Shown piece by piece: positions 28,167 to 38,948 of a stretch of 64,000 nucleotides of DNA. The stretch is from assembly GCA_905235085.1 (NCBI GenBank), contig CAJOKD010000008.1:50682-114681 (forward strand), read 5' to 3'. Within the stretch, counting starts at the first letter, position 1. Each line of letters opens with the position of its first letter. Both the position numbers and the translations under genes were made by a program. This DNA comes from an uncultured Bacteroidales bacterium. GTDB taxonomy: Bacteria; Bacteroidota; Bacteroidia; Bacteroidales; UBA932. The notes beneath the pieces were generated by a model. It searched no databases. It was not told the DNA's origin and saw only the letters and a list, made by a program, of their open reading frames with translations.

Positions 28167-29426
28167 ATGACAGGTAAGGAAAGAATTAGGACCGTATTGG
28201 AGCATCGTGAAGCTGACAGGATCGCCGTTGATTTCGGAACGACACCCGTGACCGGTATACACTGCAAGGTAGTGGAAGCCTTGCGGCGGCATTATGGACT
28301 GGATGACCATCCGGTATACGTACACGAACCAGGCCAAATGCTTGGATACATAGAAGACGACCTGGCTGAAGCGCTGGGCACCGATACGGCGGGCTGTTTC
28401 GCTCCCAAGAACTCCATAGGCGTCCTGAACAAGGACTGGAAGGAGTACAGGATGCCCTGGGGCCAAGTCGTTATGCTGCCGGCAAAGATGGTTGATTCCT
28501 TCACCCCGAAGGACGGAGGACTCTATACTTATCCTGAGGGAGACAATACATTGCCGCCTTCCGGGTATATGCCCGAGCGGTGTTATTTCTTCGATTCCAT
28601 CGAGCGGCAGCAAGGCGAGATCGATGATGACAACCTCAATGTGGAAGACAATCTCCAGGAATATAGCGAAATAGACGATGAGACCCTCCTTTACTGGAAG
28701 ACCGTCACCGACCGTGCGGCACAGACCGGGAGAGCTGTCGTGGCAGGATTCGGTGGAATGGCACTGGGAGATGTAGCACGCATCATATCGATGGCTATCC
28801 GTGAGCCGAGGGGCATCCGCAGCGTGGCCGAATGGTATATGTCCACGGTCTGCCGTCCAGATTATGTCAAGGAACTCTTCGACCGCATTTCAGCTCTGGC
28901 CGTCAGGAACCTTGAAAAGATCCACTCTGTCGTAGGTGAGAACGTGGATGTCGTTTATGTCTGCGGCGCCGATTTCGGTACTCAGACAAGCCAGTTCCTT
29001 TCCGTAGAGACTCTTGACGAACTGTATGTCCCATACTACAAGAGGATGAATGACTGGATACATCAGAATACCACCTGGAAGACCTTCAAGCACTGCTGCG
29101 GCGCAATATATCCATTGCTTGACAGTTTGATCGGTGCCGGATTCGATATAATCAATCCGGTGCAGATCGCAGCCAAGGATATGGATCCTCAGAGACTCAA
29201 GGATGAATTCGGAGACCGGGTTACATTCTGGGGAGGAGGCGTTGATACCCAGAAGACGCTTCCTTTCGGGACTCCCGCCCAGGTCAGGGAAGAAGTGTTG
29301 AAACTGTGCGATATTTTCTCAAAGGGAGGAGGATTCGTCTACAATACGGTGCACAATATCCAGGCTAACGTGCCGGTGGAGAATGTAGTTGCGCTTATGG
29401 ATACTTTGAAAGAAATACGATCTTGA
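28167..29426 (+). CDS. Uroporphyrinogen-decarboxylase-family corrinoid methyltransferase (MtaA/CmuA-like)
   Basis: MTGKERIRTVLEHREADRIAVDFGTTPVTGIH...TFKHCCGAIYPLLDSLIGAGFDIINPVQIAAKDMDPQRLKDEFGDRVTFWGGGVDTQ. Confidence 0.85.
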   Translation: MTGKERIRTVLEHREADRIAVDFGTTPVTGIHCKVVEALRRHYGLDDHPVYVHEPGQMLGYIEDDLAEALGTDTAGCFAPKNSIGVLNKDWKEYRMPWGQVVMLPAKMVDSFTPKDGGLYTYPEGDNTLPPSGYMPERCYFFDSIERQQGEIDDDNLNVEDNLQEYSEIDDETLLYWKTVTDRAAQTGRAVVAGFGGMALGDVARIISMAIREPRGIRSVAEWYMSTVCRPDYVKELFDRISALAVRNLEKIHSVVGENVDVVYVCGADFGTQTSQFLSVETLDELYVPYYKRMNDWIHQNTTWKTFKHCCGAIYPLLDSLIGAGFDIINPVQIAAKDMDPQRLKDEFGDRVTFWGGGVDTQKTLPFGTPAQVREEVLKLCDIFSKGGGFVYNTVHNIQANVPVENVVALMDTLKEIRS

Positions 29427-29427
29427 T

Positions 29428-30048
29428 ATGGACAATCTCTACAATGCAATCTTCAAGGGTCTTGCTCCAGTTGCAAAGACTTCGGTCCAGGAAGCCTTGG
29501 ACTCAGGTAAAACACCTCAGGAAATCATCGATGCCTCAATGATACCTGCTATGGAGGCCATCGGCAGGGAATTCGAGGCCGGCCGCGTATTCGTTCCAAA
29601 CCTCCTTCTCAGTGCGAGGGCTATGAAAGGAGCCTTGGATATCCTCAAGCCCTTGATGATGGCCGGCCAGACCACTACTCTCGGGACTGTGGTGATAGGC
29701 ACCGTCAAAGGCGACCTCCACGATATCGGCAAGAACCTAGTAGCTTCTATGCTAGAGGGACGCGGCTTCAAGGTAATCAACCTGGGTACAGATGTTTCCA
29801 AGGAGCGTTTCATCGAGGCTGCCAGGGAGAATGAAGCAGACATAATCTGCCTTTCGGCCCTGCTTACCACTACGATGGATTATATGAAGGACATCGTGGA
29901 TGCAGTCAGGGAGTCCGGACTGGATGTGAAGATAATGGTAGGTGGTGCGCCTCTTACTCCTGATTTCGCGTCCGGAATCGGTGCTGATGGCTACAGTTCC
30001 AACGCCAATGAAGCTGTAGCCGTGGCGAAACAGCTCGTAGCGGTATGA
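29428..30048 (+). CDS. Cobalamin-binding corrinoid protein (MtaC/MtbC-like)
   Basis: GTVKGDLHDIGKNLVASMLEGRGFKVINLGTDVSKERFIEAA (DxHxxG B12 motif); helical cap domain N-terminal. Confidence 0.93.
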   Translation: MDNLYNAIFKGLAPVAKTSVQEALDSGKTPQEIIDASMIPAMEAIGREFEAGRVFVPNLLLSARAMKGALDILKPLMMAGQTTTLGTVVIGTVKGDLHDIGKNLVASMLEGRGFKVINLGTDVSKERFIEAARENEADIICLSALLTTTMDYMKDIVDAVRESGLDVKIMVGGAPLTPDFASGIGADGYSSNANEAVAVAKQLVAV

Positions 30049-30719
30049 TACAGAAGTCTTTCCAGATCAGTCCGGAAGAACTGCCTGAAAAAGAGGTCTG
30101 GTTCGCGATGGGATACCGGGACTCTGTCCCCGAAGCCCGGATACGGGACTATGTGCTCGCCCTGCGAGACCGGCTCGTTCCCCAGGCTACCCTCCGTTAT
30201 ATGTACCAGGTTGTCGAGGCCGAGAAGCTTTCCTCCAGGAAAGTTCGTATGGGAGGGGAGACCTTCACTCCGGAAGGGATCATCTGTTCCTATCTGGAAG
30301 GTATGACTCACGCCTTGCTCTTCGTCGGTACTGCAGGATGGGAATACGACCGGGCGAAGGAAGAACTTAAGAGCGATGGAGATATAGTATCCGATTTCAT
30401 TGCGGATGCGATCGGTACAGTCCTGGCGGAAACTACTGTAGCCAGGATTGAAAGCGATTATGACGATCTCCGCACACTTTCGATGCCGTACAGTCCTGGA
30501 TACTGCAACTGGGACATCCGAGAGCAGCATATCCTCTTCTCCCTTTTCCCGGAGAAGCCTTGCGGGATCATTCTCTCCGATACTTCTCTTATGGCTCCGG
30601 AGAAGTCCGTCAGCGGCTTCTTCGCTATGGGGAAGGACCTTCAGCGCCAGCCCTATCATTGTCAAATATGCAAGAACACAAAATGTTACAAAAGAAGAAA
30701 CGCTTGGCTATCCCCATAA
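30045..30719 (+). CDS. Standalone vitamin-B12-dependent methionine synthase activation-domain protein
   Basis: YSPGYCNWDIREQHILFSLFPEKPCGIILSDTSLMAPEKSVSGFFAMG...CQICKNTKCYKRR. Confidence 0.87.
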   Translation: MIQKSFQISPEELPEKEVWFAMGYRDSVPEARIRDYVLALRDRLVPQATLRYMYQVVEAEKLSSRKVRMGGETFTPEGIICSYLEGMTHALLFVGTAGWEYDRAKEELKSDGDIVSDFIADAIGTVLAETTVARIESDYDDLRTLSMPYSPGYCNWDIREQHILFSLFPEKPCGIILSDTSLMAPEKSVSGFFAMGKDLQRQPYHCQICKNTKCYKRRNAWLSP

Positions 30720-31660
30720 TGACCCACCCGGGGATAGAGTTATGCGGCAGTACTGTCCTGAAAGCAGTGACTGACGGTCAGGTACACGCAGATGCCATAT
30801 GCGCACTTGAAGCTGAATTCCCGGCGGATGCGGTCACTGCCATTATGGACCTCACTGTCGAAGCGGAGGCCTTCGGAGCAGAGGTACGTTTCAGCGAAAA
30901 CGCTATACCGAACATCGTAGGCCGCCTGGTCACCGATGCCGATTCAGTTGCAGCTCTGGCTGTACCTTCTCTTGATGCAGGCAGGGTCAAAGAGTATCTG
31001 AAAGCGAACCGTATCGTCGCATCCCGCATCAAGGACAAGAAGGTTTTTGGGGGATGCATCGGTCCGTTTTCCCTTGCCGGCAGGCTGTTCGACCTGTCCG
31101 AACTTATGATGGCTATGTACATCGAGCCTGAAACGGTGACTATGCTCCTTGAAAAGTGTACGGCTTTCATTACTAGTTACATACAGGCGATGAAGGAAAC
31201 GGGTATCGATGGTGTCGTCCTTGCCGAACCTGCTGCCGGACTCGTATCCAATGACGATTGCTATTCATATTCGTCAGTTTATGTGCGCAGGATAGTCGAT
31301 GCGGTTCAGGATGAGAGCTTCTCCGTCATCCTGCATAATTGCGGTAATACCGGTCATTGCACGGACGCTATGATACGTTCAGGCGCCGCAGCCTTGCATT
31401 TCGGCAACCGGGCCGATATGGTCGAAGCCTTGCGCGTATGTCCTCCTGACCTTCCTGTCCTGGGCAATATCGATCCCGTCGGTATACTCCAGCAATCTTC
31501 TCCTGAAACAGTCTATTCCGCCGTCAGCGAGTTGCTTGACAAGACTTCCGGATACGCCAATTTCATTCTTTCGTCAGGATGCGATGTACCGCCCCGCACT
31601 CCTTTCGAGAACATAAAGGCATTCTATAAGGCTCTTGCCGAATACAATGAAAAGGATTGA
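30668..31660 (+). CDS. Second uroporphyrinogen-decarboxylase-family methyltransferase (MtbA-like)
   Basis: Starts MQEHKMLQKKKRLAIPIMTHPGIELCG; Zn-type motif ILHNCGNTGHC...FILSSGCDVPPRTPFENI. Confidence 0.87.
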   Translation: MQEHKMLQKKKRLAIPIMTHPGIELCGSTVLKAVTDGQVHADAICALEAEFPADAVTAIMDLTVEAEAFGAEVRFSENAIPNIVGRLVTDADSVAALAVPSLDAGRVKEYLKANRIVASRIKDKKVFGGCIGPFSLAGRLFDLSELMMAMYIEPETVTMLLEKCTAFITSYIQAMKETGIDGVVLAEPAAGLVSNDDCYSYSSVYVRRIVDAVQDESFSVILHNCGNTGHCTDAMIRSGAAALHFGNRADMVEALRVCPPDLPVLGNIDPVGILQQSSPETVYSAVSELLDKTSGYANFILSSGCDVPPRTPFENIKAFYKALAEYNEKD

Positions 31661-33110
31661 TTATGCATCTTCGATGACCTCCTTCAGGTGGTGGATGTGT
31701 GCGCTGCTCTTCTTTGCGACCACCATAAACTATCTGGACCGGCAGGTCCTCTCCCTGACTTACGAGGAGTTCATCAAGCCGGAATTCCACTGGACTGATG
31801 CAGAATATGGTACGGTGACAGGATTTTTCTCCCTCTTCTACGCGGTATGCTGCCTGTTCGCAGGCAAGTTCATAGATTGGATAGGAGTCAAGAGGGGATA
31901 TCTGATTTCGATCCTGGTATGGTCGACCGGCGCCTGCCTCCACGCTGCTACGGGATGGATGACAGTGTCCCTCACCGGGCTTGAGTCCGCCTCTGCTCTC
32001 AAGGCAGTCGAGGCCGGAAGCAATATCGCCCTTGCCGTCTCGGTGACATCGGTATATCTGTTTATGTTCTGCCGTGGAGTCCTGGCTCTTGGTGAAGCCG
32101 GCAATTTCCCATCGGCCATCAAGGTCACTGCGGAGTACTTCCCGAAGAAAGACCGAGCCTTCGCCACTACCATATTCAATGCAGGAGCTTCCGTGGGAGC
32201 CCTTGCTGCTCCTCTCTGTATTCCCGCCCTGGCAAAGTCCTATGGCTGGGAAATGGCCTTTATCATCATAGGTGCCATAGGTTTCATCTGGGTATTCTTC
32301 TGGATATTCCTCTATGACAAGCCTGAGGAAAGCAAGTATGTAAATGCAGGAGAACTCGAGTATATCCATCAGGATGATGCCGGAGATGAGGCAGGGGAGG
32401 CGGTCTCGGAAGCCGTCAAACCGATCCCTCTGCGTCAGTGCCTGCGCTACCGCCAGGCCTGGTGTGTCATACTCGGGAAATTCATCTCCGACTGCGTGTG
32501 GTGGTTCTTCCTGTTCTGGGCTCCATCGTATTTTGACACCCAGTTCGGCGCCAAAGCCAGTTCCACGATGGGGAAGCTGCTTCTGATCACGCTCTATGCC
32601 ATCTGCTCGATCCTTTCGATATTCGGAGGATATGTTCCTAAGTATTTCGTGGAGAAGAAAGGAATGCATCATTATGATGCCAGGATGAGGGCGATGTTCA
32701 TATTCGCGCTGTTCCCGTTGTTCTCATTGCTTGCTCAGCCTCTTGGAGCAAGCTTCAATTCGCCGTGGTGGCCTGCTGTCCTGATCGGTCTGGCAGCTGC
32801 GGGACACTCCGCCTGGGCGGCCAACCAGTACAGCGTAATCTCCGACTTGTTTCCTAAGAGTACCATCGCTACAATGACAGGACTCAGTTCGCTTGCCGGG
32901 GGAATATCCACGATGGCTCTTCAGAAAATAGCGGGAAACCTATTCACTTATGCAGAAGGAGCCGGAAGTGCGTTCCGTTTCCTCGGATTCGAAGGCAAAC
33001 CGGCAGGTTATTTCGTAATCTTCTGTTACTGTGGGCTCGCATACCTCCTGTCCTGGGTGGTTATGAAGTCCCTTGTCCCGAAATACAATCCTGTCGTTTA
33101 CACGGAATAA
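31647..33110 (+). CDS. MFS transporter, anion:cation symporter (hexuronate/ExuT-like) family
   Basis: WWMCALLFFATTINYLDRQVLSLTYEEFIKPEFHWTDAEYGTVTGFFSLFYAVCCLFAGKFIDWIGVKRGY; about 12 TM. Confidence 0.86.
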   Translation: MKRIDYASSMTSFRWWMCALLFFATTINYLDRQVLSLTYEEFIKPEFHWTDAEYGTVTGFFSLFYAVCCLFAGKFIDWIGVKRGYLISILVWSTGACLHAATGWMTVSLTGLESASALKAVEAGSNIALAVSVTSVYLFMFCRGVLALGEAGNFPSAIKVTAEYFPKKDRAFATTIFNAGASVGALAAPLCIPALAKSYGWEMAFIIIGAIGFIWVFFWIFLYDKPEESKYVNAGELEYIHQDDAGDEAGEAVSEAVKPIPLRQCLRYRQAWCVILGKFISDCVWWFFLFWAPSYFDTQFGAKASSTMGKLLLITLYAICSILSIFGGYVPKYFVEKKGMHHYDARMRAMFIFALFPLFSLLAQPLGASFNSPWWPAVLIGLAAAGHSAWAANQYSVISDLFPKSTIATMTGLSSLAGGISTMALQKIAGNLFTYAEGAGSAFRFLGFEGKPAGYFVIFCYCGLAYLLSWVVMKSLVPKYNPVVYTE

Positions 33111-35033: not shown

Positions 35034-35103
35034 GTTGCTAAGTTAGTGAAATTATCTGGCATTATCTTGGTATAAGTCCTGTCGGACCATAAGACTGATC
35101 AAG

Positions 35104-35439
35104 ATGAAACGGATGAATGGATTATCGTTCGCACTGGCCGTAGCTGCGGTTGCCCTGTGCGCTTCCACCTGCGAGAAAATGGAACCGGGCGACTATCGCG
35201 ACCATCTCGGCAACAAGATAAACCTGCTGGGAGGCTGGATCCTTTCGGAGGTACAGTACAAGACCGCCGGGATAATTGAATCCCGCGGGGTCGACGCCCA
35301 GTCTGTAATGGAGTTTGCAGGCGATGGACTCGGGTACACGAAGAGCTTCTCCGGGGCTGTCGAAGGAGTCGTCTCCGTCGAACGGGACCGGATATACCAT
35401 CTGATAGACCCGGTCAAGCCTCGGCTCGAAGTAAAGTGA
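35104..35439 (+). CDS. Small secreted/lipoprotein of unknown function
   Basis: MKRMNGLSFALAVAAVALCASTCEKMEPG signal; no family recognised. Confidence 0.5.
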   Translation: MKRMNGLSFALAVAAVALCASTCEKMEPGDYRDHLGNKINLLGGWILSEVQYKTAGIIESRGVDAQSVMEFAGDGLGYTKSFSGAVEGVVSVERDRIYHLIDPVKPRLEVK

Positions 35440-35486
35440 TTGTCGCTGCCATTATTCCCTTGCATGTATGGCCCATTGCAGTGACG

Positions 35487-36692
35487 CTATAGTTTATTCC
35501 TGTATAGGTAATATTCGTGTACCAGGCTGCGGTAGCCAAGGGATTTCAAGTCCTTGTACCGCAGCCGGTAATTTGCTTTATTATGCCTGCCCGTCGAAAG
35601 GAACCGTATATATTGCTGCAGGTACCGGTCTATTTCTCTTAGGCCTTCTGTCCTGTTGATGACGGGGAAGAACCACCTGGACCAGCTCAGCGAATCGGGA
35701 TCCTCGCTTTCGAACAGTTTTCCGTTGAACTTCCTTATCAATGCTCCGGCGGCCTTGCCGGTATCGATGCCCTTGATGCTGCTCCAACGGTGGAGAGAGC
35801 GTGCAGCACGCCGGATCTTGCCCTTCATCTTGCTCCGCACCGCCGTCGATATGTCAATTGCCTCTCCCAGGCACCTGAAGCCCAGGAATTCAAAGGGTTC
35901 GTCCGGAGGGTAAATCCTTTCCTTGTCGGGATTGACCTCCAATCCGTATTCCTTCAGATAACCGAGCAAGGCGGCCTTGTGGACTTCCAGTTCTTCCTTG
36001 TCGGGAGCGAATAGGATGATGTCGTCCGAATATCTGGCATATACTACTCCGGCTTCCTCGAAATGCCGGTCCACCTCCATCAAGTACACATCGGCCAGGA
36101 ACGGGGATGTCGGCGTACCCGCCATCACACCTCTGTTTTCCTGGATTATCTTTCCGTCGGAAAGTGCCCTACCATCGGTCAGTATCCTCTCGAAGAAAGC
36201 ATAGAGAGGCGGGTCGTCCGCCAGCATTTCCTTGAGTATTGGGAGAAGTTTGGGGATTGAAATGGAATTGAAGTAATCGTGGATGTCGAGTTTGTAGGCC
36301 CACATATTCCTGCCGCGCAGTTCTTTACGCAGACGGAATATAGCATCGCTGGCCTTGATCCCGCGGCGGAAAGAATAGCAGTTGGGGGAAAACCGGTCAT
36401 CGTAGCGATAAAGGAGGAAAGCCATCAGCTTGAGGACTTTTGTCTCGTCGGGAGGGAAGCAGTATATCGTCCGTTTCTTTCCCGTCCCCATCTTGTTTAT
36501 CTGCTTCTTTTCCGGGATGCCCAGACCTTCGCCGCTCAAGATGTCACGTACGGCAGGGATATATCTCTCATTACCGACCCAGTCGTCCGCATCACTGAAC
36601 ATAGGCCAGTTGAAACGACCTTTAACCAGGCGGTGAGCGAGGAATTCCTCCCAAACCGCCTGGCTGTCGAGCTGAAAGATAATGCTTTGCAT
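35487..36692 (-). CDS. Standalone reverse transcriptase (RNA-directed DNA polymerase), group not resolved
   Basis: AYKLDIHDYFNSI (RT3), GVMAGTPTSPFLADVYLMEVD (RT4), VYARYSDDIILFA (RT5 YSDD), EVNPDKERIYPPDEPFEFLGFR (RT6/7), C-terminal thumb-like region. Confidence 0.92.
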   Translation of the reverse strand: MQSIIFQLDSQAVWEEFLAHRLVKGRFNWPMFSDADDWVGNERYIPAVRDILSGEGLGIPEKKQINKMGTGKKRTIYCFPPDETKVLKLMAFLLYRYDDRFSPNCYSFRRGIKASDAIFRLRKELRGRNMWAYKLDIHDYFNSISIPKLLPILKEMLADDPPLYAFFERILTDGRALSDGKIIQENRGVMAGTPTSPFLADVYLMEVDRHFEEAGVVYARYSDDIILFAPDKEELEVHKAALLGYLKEYGLEVNPDKERIYPPDEPFEFLGFRCLGEAIDISTAVRSKMKGKIRRAARSLHRWSSIKGIDTGKAAGALIRKFNGKLFESEDPDSLSWSRWFFPVINRTEGLREIDRYLQQYIRFLSTGRHNKANYRLRYKDLKSLGYRSLVHEYYLYRNKL

Positions 36693-36701
36693 AAAGAAAA
36701 G

Positions 36702-36831
36702 AAAAAGGGGAATGATTTTGAATCAGCAAAATTGCTGATCACCGGACGGGGACATCATCCTGCCGCCTGCAAGGCATTGTTATGGTGATGCTGCGTCCTT
36801 CGCAGGCGCAACTGTGTTGCATCCCCTTTTT
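36702..36831 (-). ncRNA. Candidate structured non-coding RNA upstream of the reverse transcriptase
   Basis: Ends form an inverted repeat (aaaaaggggaatg 36702-36714 / catccccttttt 36820-36831); internal hairpins at 36723-36738, 36791-36805 and 36808-36820; lies in the 146-bp gap between two co-directional genes. Confidence 0.5.
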
Positions 36832-36838
36832 CAGATTG

Positions 36839-37351
36839 CTATCCCAGAAACCTGTGGATGCGGCTTGCTACATATCCGCGTTCGTTCGGCATCTGAGTGT
36901 AGAAGTTGATGTAAGGAATGCCGATCTTCTTGGCATACATCCTGGCTATCAGGTACTTCACATTCGCATCGTGGCTGTGACCGCTTCCCAGCATCACGAC
37001 TCCCTTGGGTGATTCACCCTGGAACAGGACGAAGGAATATGGCTCTCCCCATTCTGCCTTGTAAACCTGGAGCGGACGGGATCTGTAGAGTTTGGCCTCA
37101 TCGGCGGCGTTGCCGGCGAGTTCGGTTACTGGCACATTCTCGCGTACCTCATATCCGGGGCACTCCGACTGGATGATGCCGCGGAAATAGTCGCGCCACT
37201 CCACGGCGGTTTTCTCCTGGACAGGAGCCGAATCGTAGGAAGGGGAGTACGAAGGCTTAGGCTTGGCCTCGGACTCTTGCTTGGTGGCCAGCTCCTGGGC
37301 AACGGATGCTACTTTGCCGGCAATCTCGAACAAATTCTTTAATAGGCTCAT
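36839..37351 (-). CDS. Conserved hypothetical protein
   Basis: Soluble 170 aa; KAEWGEPYSFVLFQGESPKGVVMLGSGHSHDANVKYLIARMYAKKIGIPYINFYTQMPNERGYVASRIHRFL; family not recognised with certainty. Confidence 0.6.
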   Translation of the reverse strand: MSLLKNLFEIAGKVASVAQELATKQESEAKPKPSYSPSYDSAPVQEKTAVEWRDYFRGIIQSECPGYEVRENVPVTELAGNAADEAKLYRSRPLQVYKAEWGEPYSFVLFQGESPKGVVMLGSGHSHDANVKYLIARMYAKKIGIPYINFYTQMPNERGYVASRIHRFLG

Positions 37352-37407
37352 AGTGCATTGTTATTCAATGCTATAAAAATACGAATAGTTTTCTCAAATG
37401 CAAGCGT

Positions 37408-37833
37408 CTACAGCGATTTCCCGAAAAAGAAAAACCACGCCGCTCGCTTGGCGGGAACCCCGTCTACGTGGCCGATTGTCCTGTAAGACGCATCCTGAAT
37501 TGTTCCGCCGGACTTCACATAGCCTATCGTCCTGTATCCTGAATCCTGTACGGTGCCATTGCCCTTTATGTATCCCAGGGTGCGGTATGACGCATCCTGT
37601 ACGGTTCCGTCGCCCTTGAGGTATCCGATGGTCCGGTAAGACGAGTCCTGTATCCTTCCGTCAGCATTGAAATAACCCACGGTCCTGTAAGAGCCGTCTT
37701 GAATTGTGCCGTCCGACTTGATATATCCGACAGTCCTGTATCCCGAGTCCGTGATACGCTGGGCGTGGATCGCGGTTCCTGCAACGAGGAAACAGAGCAC
37801 GAAGAATATGCCCGATATGAACTTATTCATCAC
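37408..37833 (-). CDS. Secreted repeat protein with six 17-aa repeats
   Basis: Signal peptide then repeats (TIQDGSYRTVGYFNADG, RIQDSSYRTIGYLKGDG, TVQDASYRTLGYIKGNG, TVQDSGYRTIGYVKSGG, ...). Confidence 0.8.
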   Translation of the reverse strand: MMNKFISGIFFVLCFLVAGTAIHAQRITDSGYRTVGYIKSDGTIQDGSYRTVGYFNADGRIQDSSYRTIGYLKGDGTVQDASYRTLGYIKGNGTVQDSGYRTIGYVKSGGTIQDASYRTIGHVDGVPAKRAAWFFFFGKSL

Positions 37834-37844
37834 AATGAAGATTT

Positions 37845-38948
37845 TCAGGCACTTCTATCAATTTTCATACCCAGTACAGCCCACCTGATGAATGGAATGC
37901 GCCGGAGTATTTCGTATATGAGCGGTGACAGAGTGAATACGGCAACCGTAAGGATAGCATACATTGCAAACGGAGGAAGCTGTGTGTATGTCTTCATCAT
38001 ATACCCTATGCTTGCAATTACAAGATAATGAACTATATAAAGCCCATAACTTGAACGTGTCATATAGCCTGCGAAGGTTCCTGTCCGGTCGAACTTTGCC
38101 TGGAACAGGCCTATCAAACCAAGGCAGGCAAGCCATCCGTACAGGGAGTTGAGCGGACTGCCAAGATAGCTTGGGGAAGTGTTGTCCTGCCCGAAAGTCG
38201 TGCCGATGAGAATGCCTCCGGAAACTATCGCGCAGGCAAGGAGAGGAATCCAGGCTTCCTTCAGCTTTTCCTGAACCCGGTCGTGCGAAAAGACAAAGTA
38301 ACCGAGCAGGAAAGGAACCAGATAGAAAAGCGGCTTGTACAGATTCAGGAGTCCGTCCAGGCTATCGGGTCTGGGATTCTTGATAAGCGTCTGTTCTCCC
38401 GCCCATAATAGGTTCCCCAGCAGGATCAGGACGACGATTCCGGCGTTCCCGCACCAATCCCGGAACCTGTCATTGCGGTCCAGTGCGCGCACGATCAGCA
38501 GAACGATACAAAGCAGCCACAGCAGTTGTATGAACCAGAGAGGCCCCGTTCCGCTGACCGCACACATAAGATATCTTCCTACTCCTGTAACATTGTCAAA
38601 AGCTCCCTCCCTGGCTGCGACGACAGTATTGAAATAGCCTGTCATCCAATGGTATACGAGTAGACCGACCGTTCCGGGTACGAGGAGCTTGCGTGTACGT
38701 GCCCTGAACCATTCCCTGGCCGAGCGCTTCTCGAGTGCATAGCGTGCGCTTATTCCGGCGAGGAGGAAAAGCAGGGGCATAAACCACGGGTAGAGGATAT
38801 ACATTACCACATCCTGGTATTGCGGGCCGTCTCCGAACCCTCCTATGCCGCCGAATACTCCTTTGTTGTTGAAGAAATAGATGACGTGGTAGAACAGAAC
38901 CAGGAGTACGGTCACCCAGCGTAGGTTGTCAATCCAGTGTTTCCTCAT
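37845..38948 (-). CDS. Acyltransferase-3 family membrane protein
   Basis: MRKHWIDNLRWVTVLLVLFYHVIYFFNNKGVFGGIG...; YGLYIVHYLVIASIGY; polytopic. Confidence 0.87.
   Translation of the reverse strand: MRKHWIDNLRWVTVLLVLFYHVIYFFNNKGVFGGIGGFGDGPQYQDVVMYILYPWFMPLLFLLAGISARYALEKRSAREWFRARTRKLLVPGTVGLLVYHWMTGYFNTVVAAREGAFDNVTGVGRYLMCAVSGTGPLWFIQLLWLLCIVLLIVRALDRNDRFRDWCGNAGIVVLILLGNLLWAGEQTLIKNPRPDSLDGLLNLYKPLFYLVPFLLGYFVFSHDRVQEKLKEAWIPLLACAIVSGGILIGTTFGQDNTSPSYLGSPLNSLYGWLACLGLIGLFQAKFDRTGTFAGYMTRSSYGLYIVHYLVIASIGYMMKTYTQLPPFAMYAILTVAVFTLSPLIYEILRRIPFIRWAVLGMKIDRSA

What the first reader, a model, noticed from the sequence alone, without database searches (positions are those of the whole stretch)
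35487..36840. Standalone reverse transcriptase with a compact, highly structured leader RNA
Seen: a 401-aa RT with intact catalytic motifs (YSDD) has a 146-bp non-coding gap directly upstream. That gap is closed by a 12-13 nt inverted repeat (aaaaaggggaatg / catccccttttt, one bulge) and contains perfect hairpins TCAGCAAaaTTGCTGA, CTGCGtccttCGCAG and GCAACtgtGTTGC. Known: retrons and several DRT anti-phage systems pair an RT with a neighbouring structured ncRNA template. The RT lacks the retron NAxxH and VTG motifs, the DGR [LIV]GxxxSQ motif, and group II maturase/endonuclease extensions. Inference: a candidate RT-ncRNA element, possibly defensive or regulatory, of a class I cannot assign.
Basis: partly seen in the sequence, partly recalled or inferred. 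Interest (0 to 1): 0.8.

Follow-up and report, generated by a model that had tools for sequence, protein, structure and literature searches.

The report
UG26 reverse transcriptase with RT-5 RNA
A rumen Bacteroidales genome carries a small cassette in which a reverse transcriptase of a known but unstudied group sits beside its own conserved folded RNA and a second conserved protein; it most likely works as an anti-phage system, and both the enzyme group and the RNA family were already catalogued.

Summary
In detail: a 401-aa YSDD reverse transcriptase (RT) lies directly downstream of a 146-nt structured, non-coding gap on the - strand. Both parts are already catalogued. The leader is a full-length match to Rfam RF03026, "RT-5 RNA" (90.1 bits, cut-off 45.7). 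The RT is PADLOC group UG26 (520 bits; next group UG17, now DRT10, 99.6).

New here: in 399 genomes of the host's family, RT-5 RNA occurs in 26 of the 27 genomes with UG26, always just upstream of the RT, and nowhere else; the 27th RT is cut by a contig end. A third gene (36839-37351, degenerate PD-(D/E)XK/COG2852-like) precedes the RNA in nearly all loci. A relative shows an empty site. The only unpaired run invariant in all 54 RNAs is UCAAA, placed where the DRT9 and DRT10 templates lie.

Most likely: an uncharacterised class-2-like DRT operon (partner, ncRNA, RT) in which the RNA binds the RT and templates short repetitive cDNA. Templating, repeats and defence are inferred; my repeat test was weak. 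A new member of a known kind.

The parts
36839..37351 (-). Partner protein, 170 aa; degenerate PD-(D/E)XK / COG2852-like domain; first gene of the cassette
   Evidence: HMM of the family hits 103 of 106 upstream stretches, stop codon mostly 5-12 nt before the RNA. PADLOC RTasCOG2852 weak match in 56 of 62 members. AlphaFold core pLDDT about 97; Foldseek best TnsA, E 0.03, prob 0.92. No conserved D...ExK.
36701..36832 (-). RT-associated ncRNA, from 5' to 3' strand of closing stem P1 (about 132 nt)
   Evidence: Covariation over 54 relatives.
36709..36811 (-). Rfam RF03026 RT-5 RNA core match, model 1-104 of 104
   Evidence: cmscan 90.1 bits, gathering 45.7, E 1.3e-16.
36822..36832 (-). P1 closing stem, 5' strand (GAAAAAGGGGA)
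   Evidence: 96.1% of cells paired; above all 300 phylogeny-aware simulations.
36701..36711 (-). P1 closing stem, 3' strand (UCCCCUUUUUC)
36808..36820 (-). P2 hairpin GCAAC-ACA-GUUGC
   Evidence: Compensatory changes; pair 19-27 significant after correction for all pairs.
36802..36807 (-). Pseudoknot, 5' strand (GCCUGC)
   Evidence: Pairs with 36765-36770; 99.7% of cells paired, 4 of 6 pairs with double changes; above all 300 simulations.
36765..36770 (-). Pseudoknot, 3' strand (GCAGGC) in the loop of P3
36744..36798 (-). P3 compound stem-loop (P3a, P3b, P3c) carrying the pseudoknot loop
   Evidence: Pairs 42-90, 48-83, 50-81 and 64-73 significant after correction.
36722..36739 (-). P4 hairpin AUCAGCA-AUUU-UGCUGAU
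   Evidence: Pair 101-112 significant; helix above all 300 simulations.
36712..36721 (-). Candidate template loop UCAAAAUCAU between P4 and the 3' strand of P1
   Evidence: UCAAA is the only unpaired run of 3 or more invariant in 54/54 sequences. Same relative place as the DRT10 template, downstream of a stem-loop (PMC12632851). Template role is inferred; repeat test weak.
35487..36692 (-). UG26 reverse transcriptase, 401 aa, catalytic YSDD
   Evidence: PADLOC RT_UG26 520 bits, E 8.4e-157; Pfam RVT_1; AlphaFold pLDDT 92.1.

Best explanation
This is a three-part cassette transcribed on the - strand: partner protein, RT-5 ncRNA, UG26 reverse transcriptase. The RNA is probably made from the partner-RT transcript, folds into a closing stem holding two hairpins and a pseudoknotted stem-loop, and binds the RT as its dedicated cofactor (co-occurrence and structure shown; binding inferred). 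The RT probably copies a short single-stranded segment of this RNA, most likely UCAAAAUC between P4 and the closing stem, again and again into short-repeat cDNA, in the manner of DRT9 and DRT10 (inferred). The cDNA and the partner, which looks like a catalytically dead nuclease fold, would act together in anti-phage defence (inferred from family and patchy cassette-like distribution).
For: RNA is RF03026; RT is UG26 and its next-best groups are UG17/DRT10, UG27, UG4 and Drt9. RNA and RT occur together in 26 of 27 genomes, adjacent every time, with no solo RNA. Partner conserved upstream in 103 of 106 stretches. All seven helices covary beyond a tree-based null. RT model aligns with group II RT, G2L4, DRT9 and DRT2 structures. 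[quoted passage not shown] Empty site in relative G997. RT, partner and RNA distances correlate, r 0.67-0.76.
Against: A-B-A' repeat test in the loop is weak: p 0.03 for 2-nt and 0.22 for 3-nt matches. No defence genes recognised among eight neighbouring genes. No expression, RNA-binding or cDNA data. Linked inheritance of three adjacent parts is also expected for any operon.
Confidence: 0.6

Rival explanations
1. The RNA is a cis-acting leader of the RT mRNA: it controls RT translation or transcription, perhaps by RT binding, and is not copied.
For: P1 ends 9-20 nt before the RT start in most loci, so its 3' strand and U-run could hide the start site or act as a terminator. Pseudoknot and an alternative hairpin share a strand, as in switches.
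Against: About ten loci carry 80-174 nt between RNA and RT yet keep the RNA. Related UG RTs (UG2, UG3, UG17, UG28) use a neighbouring ncRNA as template (PMC12483538, PMC12632851, PMC13174585).
Confidence: 0.15
2. It is a retron-like element making one branched or linear RNA-linked msDNA from the leader.
For: Closing inverted repeat around a structured RNA next to an RT resembles retron a1/a2 (sequence).
Against: RT lacks NAxxH and VTG; best retron model scores 64 bits against a 235-bit cut-off; Rfam names RT-5, not a retron.
Confidence: 0.06
3. The cassette is a domesticated RT with a non-defence role, for example regulation or DNA repair in rumen Bacteroidales.
For: No recognised defence neighbours; a DNA alkylation repair gene lies next to it; range confined to one family in our sampling.
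Against: Patchy presence, 27 of 399 genomes; no shared neighbours beyond the partner across loci; empty site; every close RT group is a DRT group in PADLOC.
Confidence: 0.15
4. Remnant of a group II intron with its RT.
For: Best fold match is a group II intron RT, TM 0.75; TIGR04416 hit.
Against: TIGR04416 115.9 bits against a cut-off of 300; no group II intron RNA in Rfam scan; the RNA is a different covarying structure.
Confidence: 0.01

Closest known systems
UG26 group of UG/Abi reverse transcriptases (PADLOC RT_UG26)
   Same: Full-length match, 520 bits; all 54 relatives match.
   Different: No difference found in the RT. I found no paper in the held library that characterises UG26; Mestre 2022 could not be read.
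Rfam RF03026 RT-5 RNA
   Same: Full-length match at 90.1 bits.
   Different: The conserved unit is longer (P1 and P2 added on both sides) and has a pseudoknot that the Rfam structure line leaves unpaired.
DRT10 (UG17 + SLATT + ncRNA)
   Same: Three-part layout, next-closest RT group, single-stranded loop downstream of a stem-loop inside a closing stem (PMC12632851).
   Different: Different RT group, no SLATT gene, partner is a degenerate nuclease fold, RNA sits between partner and RT rather than upstream of both, clear A-B-A' pattern not established.
DRT9 (UG28 + ncRNA)
   Same: ncRNA next to RT; universally conserved short loop (PMC12483538); RT fold TM about 0.6.
   Different: Loop is UCAAA, not poly-U; a third gene is present; RT is another group.

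Membership tests
UG26 RT | Best and full-length match to the UG26 profile | tested here: met
   520 bits over 3-399; second group 99.6 bits.
RT-5 RNA (RF03026) | Covariance-model score over the gathering cut-off | tested here: met
   90.1 against 45.7 bits, model 1-104.
Class 2 DRT system | UG-type RT with a conserved ncRNA encoded in cis | tested here: met
   Class of UG26 itself inferred from its nearest profiles, not from a tree.
Class 2 DRT system | ncRNA templates tandem-repeat cDNA | not testable with these tools
   Only a sequence hint: UCA-AAA-UCA in the loop; shuffle test weak.
Class 2 DRT system | RT-dependent phage defence | not testable with these tools
   Needs a phage challenge.
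DRT10 | UG17 RT | tested here: not met
   UG26 beats UG17 by 420 bits.
DRT10 | Adjacent SLATT-domain gene | tested here: not met
   Partner has no Pfam match in 62 members; its model is a nuclease-like fold.
DRT10 | A-B-A' pattern in the template loop | tested here: inconclusive
   35 of 37 loop variants have a 2-nt repeat against 31.0 expected, p 0.03.
Retron | NAxxH and VTG motifs in the RT | tested here: not met
   Neither present.
Diversity-generating retroelement | [LIV]GxxxSQ motif | tested here: not met
   Absent. Template/variable repeats were not searched for.
Group II intron | Intron RNA domains next to the RT | tested here: not met
   Rfam scan of the window finds RT-5 only.
Active PD-(D/E)XK / COG2852 nuclease (partner) | Conserved D...ExK catalytic residues | tested here: not met
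   No such conserved acidic and lysine set in 62 members. The fold assignment itself is weak.

The most novel reading that the evidence does not exclude
UG26 is a distinct DRT type: a pseudoknotted RNA with a conserved UCAAAAUC loop templates telomere-like short T-rich repeats (for this locus (TTTTGA)n), and a dead-nuclease partner reads or stores that DNA for phage defence.
Probability: 0.3. Interest if true: 0.7.

Novelty: new member of a known kind. Interest (0 to 1): 0.45.

Why it matters
UG26 has no mechanism in any paper I could reach. Tying it to one Rfam RNA, a fixed third gene and one invariant loop turns a vague RT-RNA candidate into a defined three-part system with a named loop to mutate. 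If it makes repeat DNA, it adds a further case to the recently proposed link between antiviral RTs and telomerase (PMC12632851), with an RNA pseudoknot to compare.

Tried and rejected
Mobile-record searches: no close relative in plasmids or phages at E 1e-30, nor in IMG/VR by peptide pattern; a looser plasmid search gave mostly group II intron RTs. The A-B-A' template pattern looked good by eye but only weakly beat shuffles, because the loop is short and A/U-rich; I do not use it as proof. Individually significant covariation after correction for all pairs was 6 of 46, plus one pair outside the structure; the pseudoknot and P1 reach significance only as whole helices. Group II intron, retron and DGR readings rejected as in the membership table. 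The neighbouring lipoprotein, beta-flower, acyltransferase and alkylation genes were rejected as system parts because they are not shared by other loci. Sources for RT-5 (Weinberg 2017) and UG26 (Mestre 2022) are not held. No RT phylogeny was built across UG groups; family assignment rests on profile scores. One search was an idle look-up.

Full report
What is there. On the - strand, window 35487-36692 encodes a 401-aa reverse transcriptase with YSDD, and the 146 nt upstream of it are non-coding. The gap folds far better than shuffled sequence, z = -4.3.

What the parts are. The gap is a full-length hit to Rfam RF03026, RT-5 RNA, 90.1 bits against a cut-off of 45.7, and it is the only Rfam hit in 64 kb. 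The RT is PADLOC RT_UG26 at 520 bits; the next groups are UG17 (the DRT10 RT), UG27, UG4 and Drt9 at 93-100 bits, and all 54 aligned relatives match UG26. The RT is therefore in a known group and the RNA in a known family.

The RNA goes with the RT. In 399 genomes of the same taxonomic family, UG26 is in 27. RF03026 is in 26 of those 27 and in no other, each time a few tens of bases upstream of the RT. The exception, G956, has its RT cut by a contig end, so the upstream stretch is missing. In phylum- and class-wide samples only the window genome rang. A scan of 85,462 species genomes gave 197 relatives, of which 80 were kept, nearly all ruminant-gut Bacteroidales assemblies. Every one of these loci with enough upstream sequence shows the RNA. 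L005, L053 and L054 escaped my extraction: L053 and L054 lie at contig ends with part of the RNA visible, and L005 is divergent but is found by Rfam (G781, 75 bits). Loci from the two sources overlap; there are 86 distinct RNA sequences, window included.

A third part. The gene at 36839-37351 (-) is conserved: a profile of its family hits 103 of 106 upstream stretches (three of these entries are the window locus itself), its stop mostly 5-12 nt before the RNA. The three without it are two contig ends and L005. The distant L020 and L022 have a longer protein that matches weakly at its C-terminal end. PADLOC's RTasCOG2852 matches 56 of 62 members weakly, and Pfam none. The AlphaFold core is confident. 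Foldseek's best match is the nuclease TnsA at E 0.03, so the fold call is tentative. No D...ExK set is conserved, so I read it as a nuclease-like fold without nuclease chemistry. With so little space between partner, RNA and RT, the RNA is probably cut from, or is part of, one operon transcript (inference).

RNA structure. On 54 distinct relatives, my 46-pair structure has 94.8% standard pairs and 32 pairs with compensatory changes. Its covariation score is 0.365, against 0.155 in shuffles and at most 0.10 when slid. A tree-based null written for this work puts every helix above all 300 simulations on the G statistic: P1, P2, pseudoknot, P3a-c and P4. Tested singly against all column pairs, 6 of 46 pairs are significant, none of them in P1 or the pseudoknot, whose columns vary little. 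The pseudoknot (GCCUGC with GCAGGC) changes in step in other clades, for example CCCGU with ACGGG in L007 and CCCGC with GCGGG in L012. Rfam's structure line leaves these bases unpaired. Since the original paper was not readable, I cannot say whether its authors saw the pseudoknot.

How it may work. Class 2 DRT enzymes studied so far copy a short segment of a cis-encoded ncRNA into repeated cDNA (PMC13174585). [quoted passage not shown] In RT-5 RNA the only unpaired run of three or more bases invariant in all 54 sequences is UCAAA, between P4 and the closing stem. In the window this loop reads UCA-AAA-UCA, which would give (TTTTGA)n by the DRT10 mechanism. The general pattern test was weak, so this is a prediction only. 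Conserved C-terminal Y379 (54/54), Y387 and S389 (52/54 each) are candidate priming residues by analogy with the C-terminal priming of DRT10 (PMC12632851).

Setting. Neighbouring genes differ between loci apart from the partner. The relative G997 has the acyltransferase and DNA-alkylation genes side by side, where the window has about 2.8 kb more. That extra stretch also holds a lipoprotein gene and a beta-flower gene that other loci do not share, so the exact cassette ends are not fixed. PADLOC recognises no defence gene among eight neighbours (one generic hydrolase hit only).

Verdict. Defence, RNA binding and templating remain inferences.

Noticed in passing
L051:3874-4001, L056:2265-2410, L063:3107-3196, L064:2962-3051, L066:3877-4001, L067:3902-4004: Inserts of about 90-145 bp between RNA and RT, with a shared motif (ATGTCTTTGACGCGGGACAC and variants), that seem to add N-terminal codons to the RT reading frame.
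   Followed up: partly
window 35040-37850: Empty-site comparison with G997 (L123): a 2.8-kb stretch with a lipoprotein gene, the RT cassette and a beta-flower gene is absent there.
   Followed up: yes
window 37408-37833 (-): Gene for a repetitive 5-fold beta-flower protein (Pfam PF21785) next to the cassette; not shared by other UG26 loci.
   Followed up: no
window 28167-31660 (+): From the translations only, this looks like a corrinoid methyltransferase gene set (MtaA/MtbA-like and corrinoid-protein-like ORFs), followed at 31635-33110 by an MFS transporter-like gene.
   Followed up: no
L020, L022 upstream of RNA: In the most distant relatives the partner domain appears as the C-terminal part of a protein of about 450 aa; L005 has an unrelated-looking 206-aa gene there.
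   Followed up: partly
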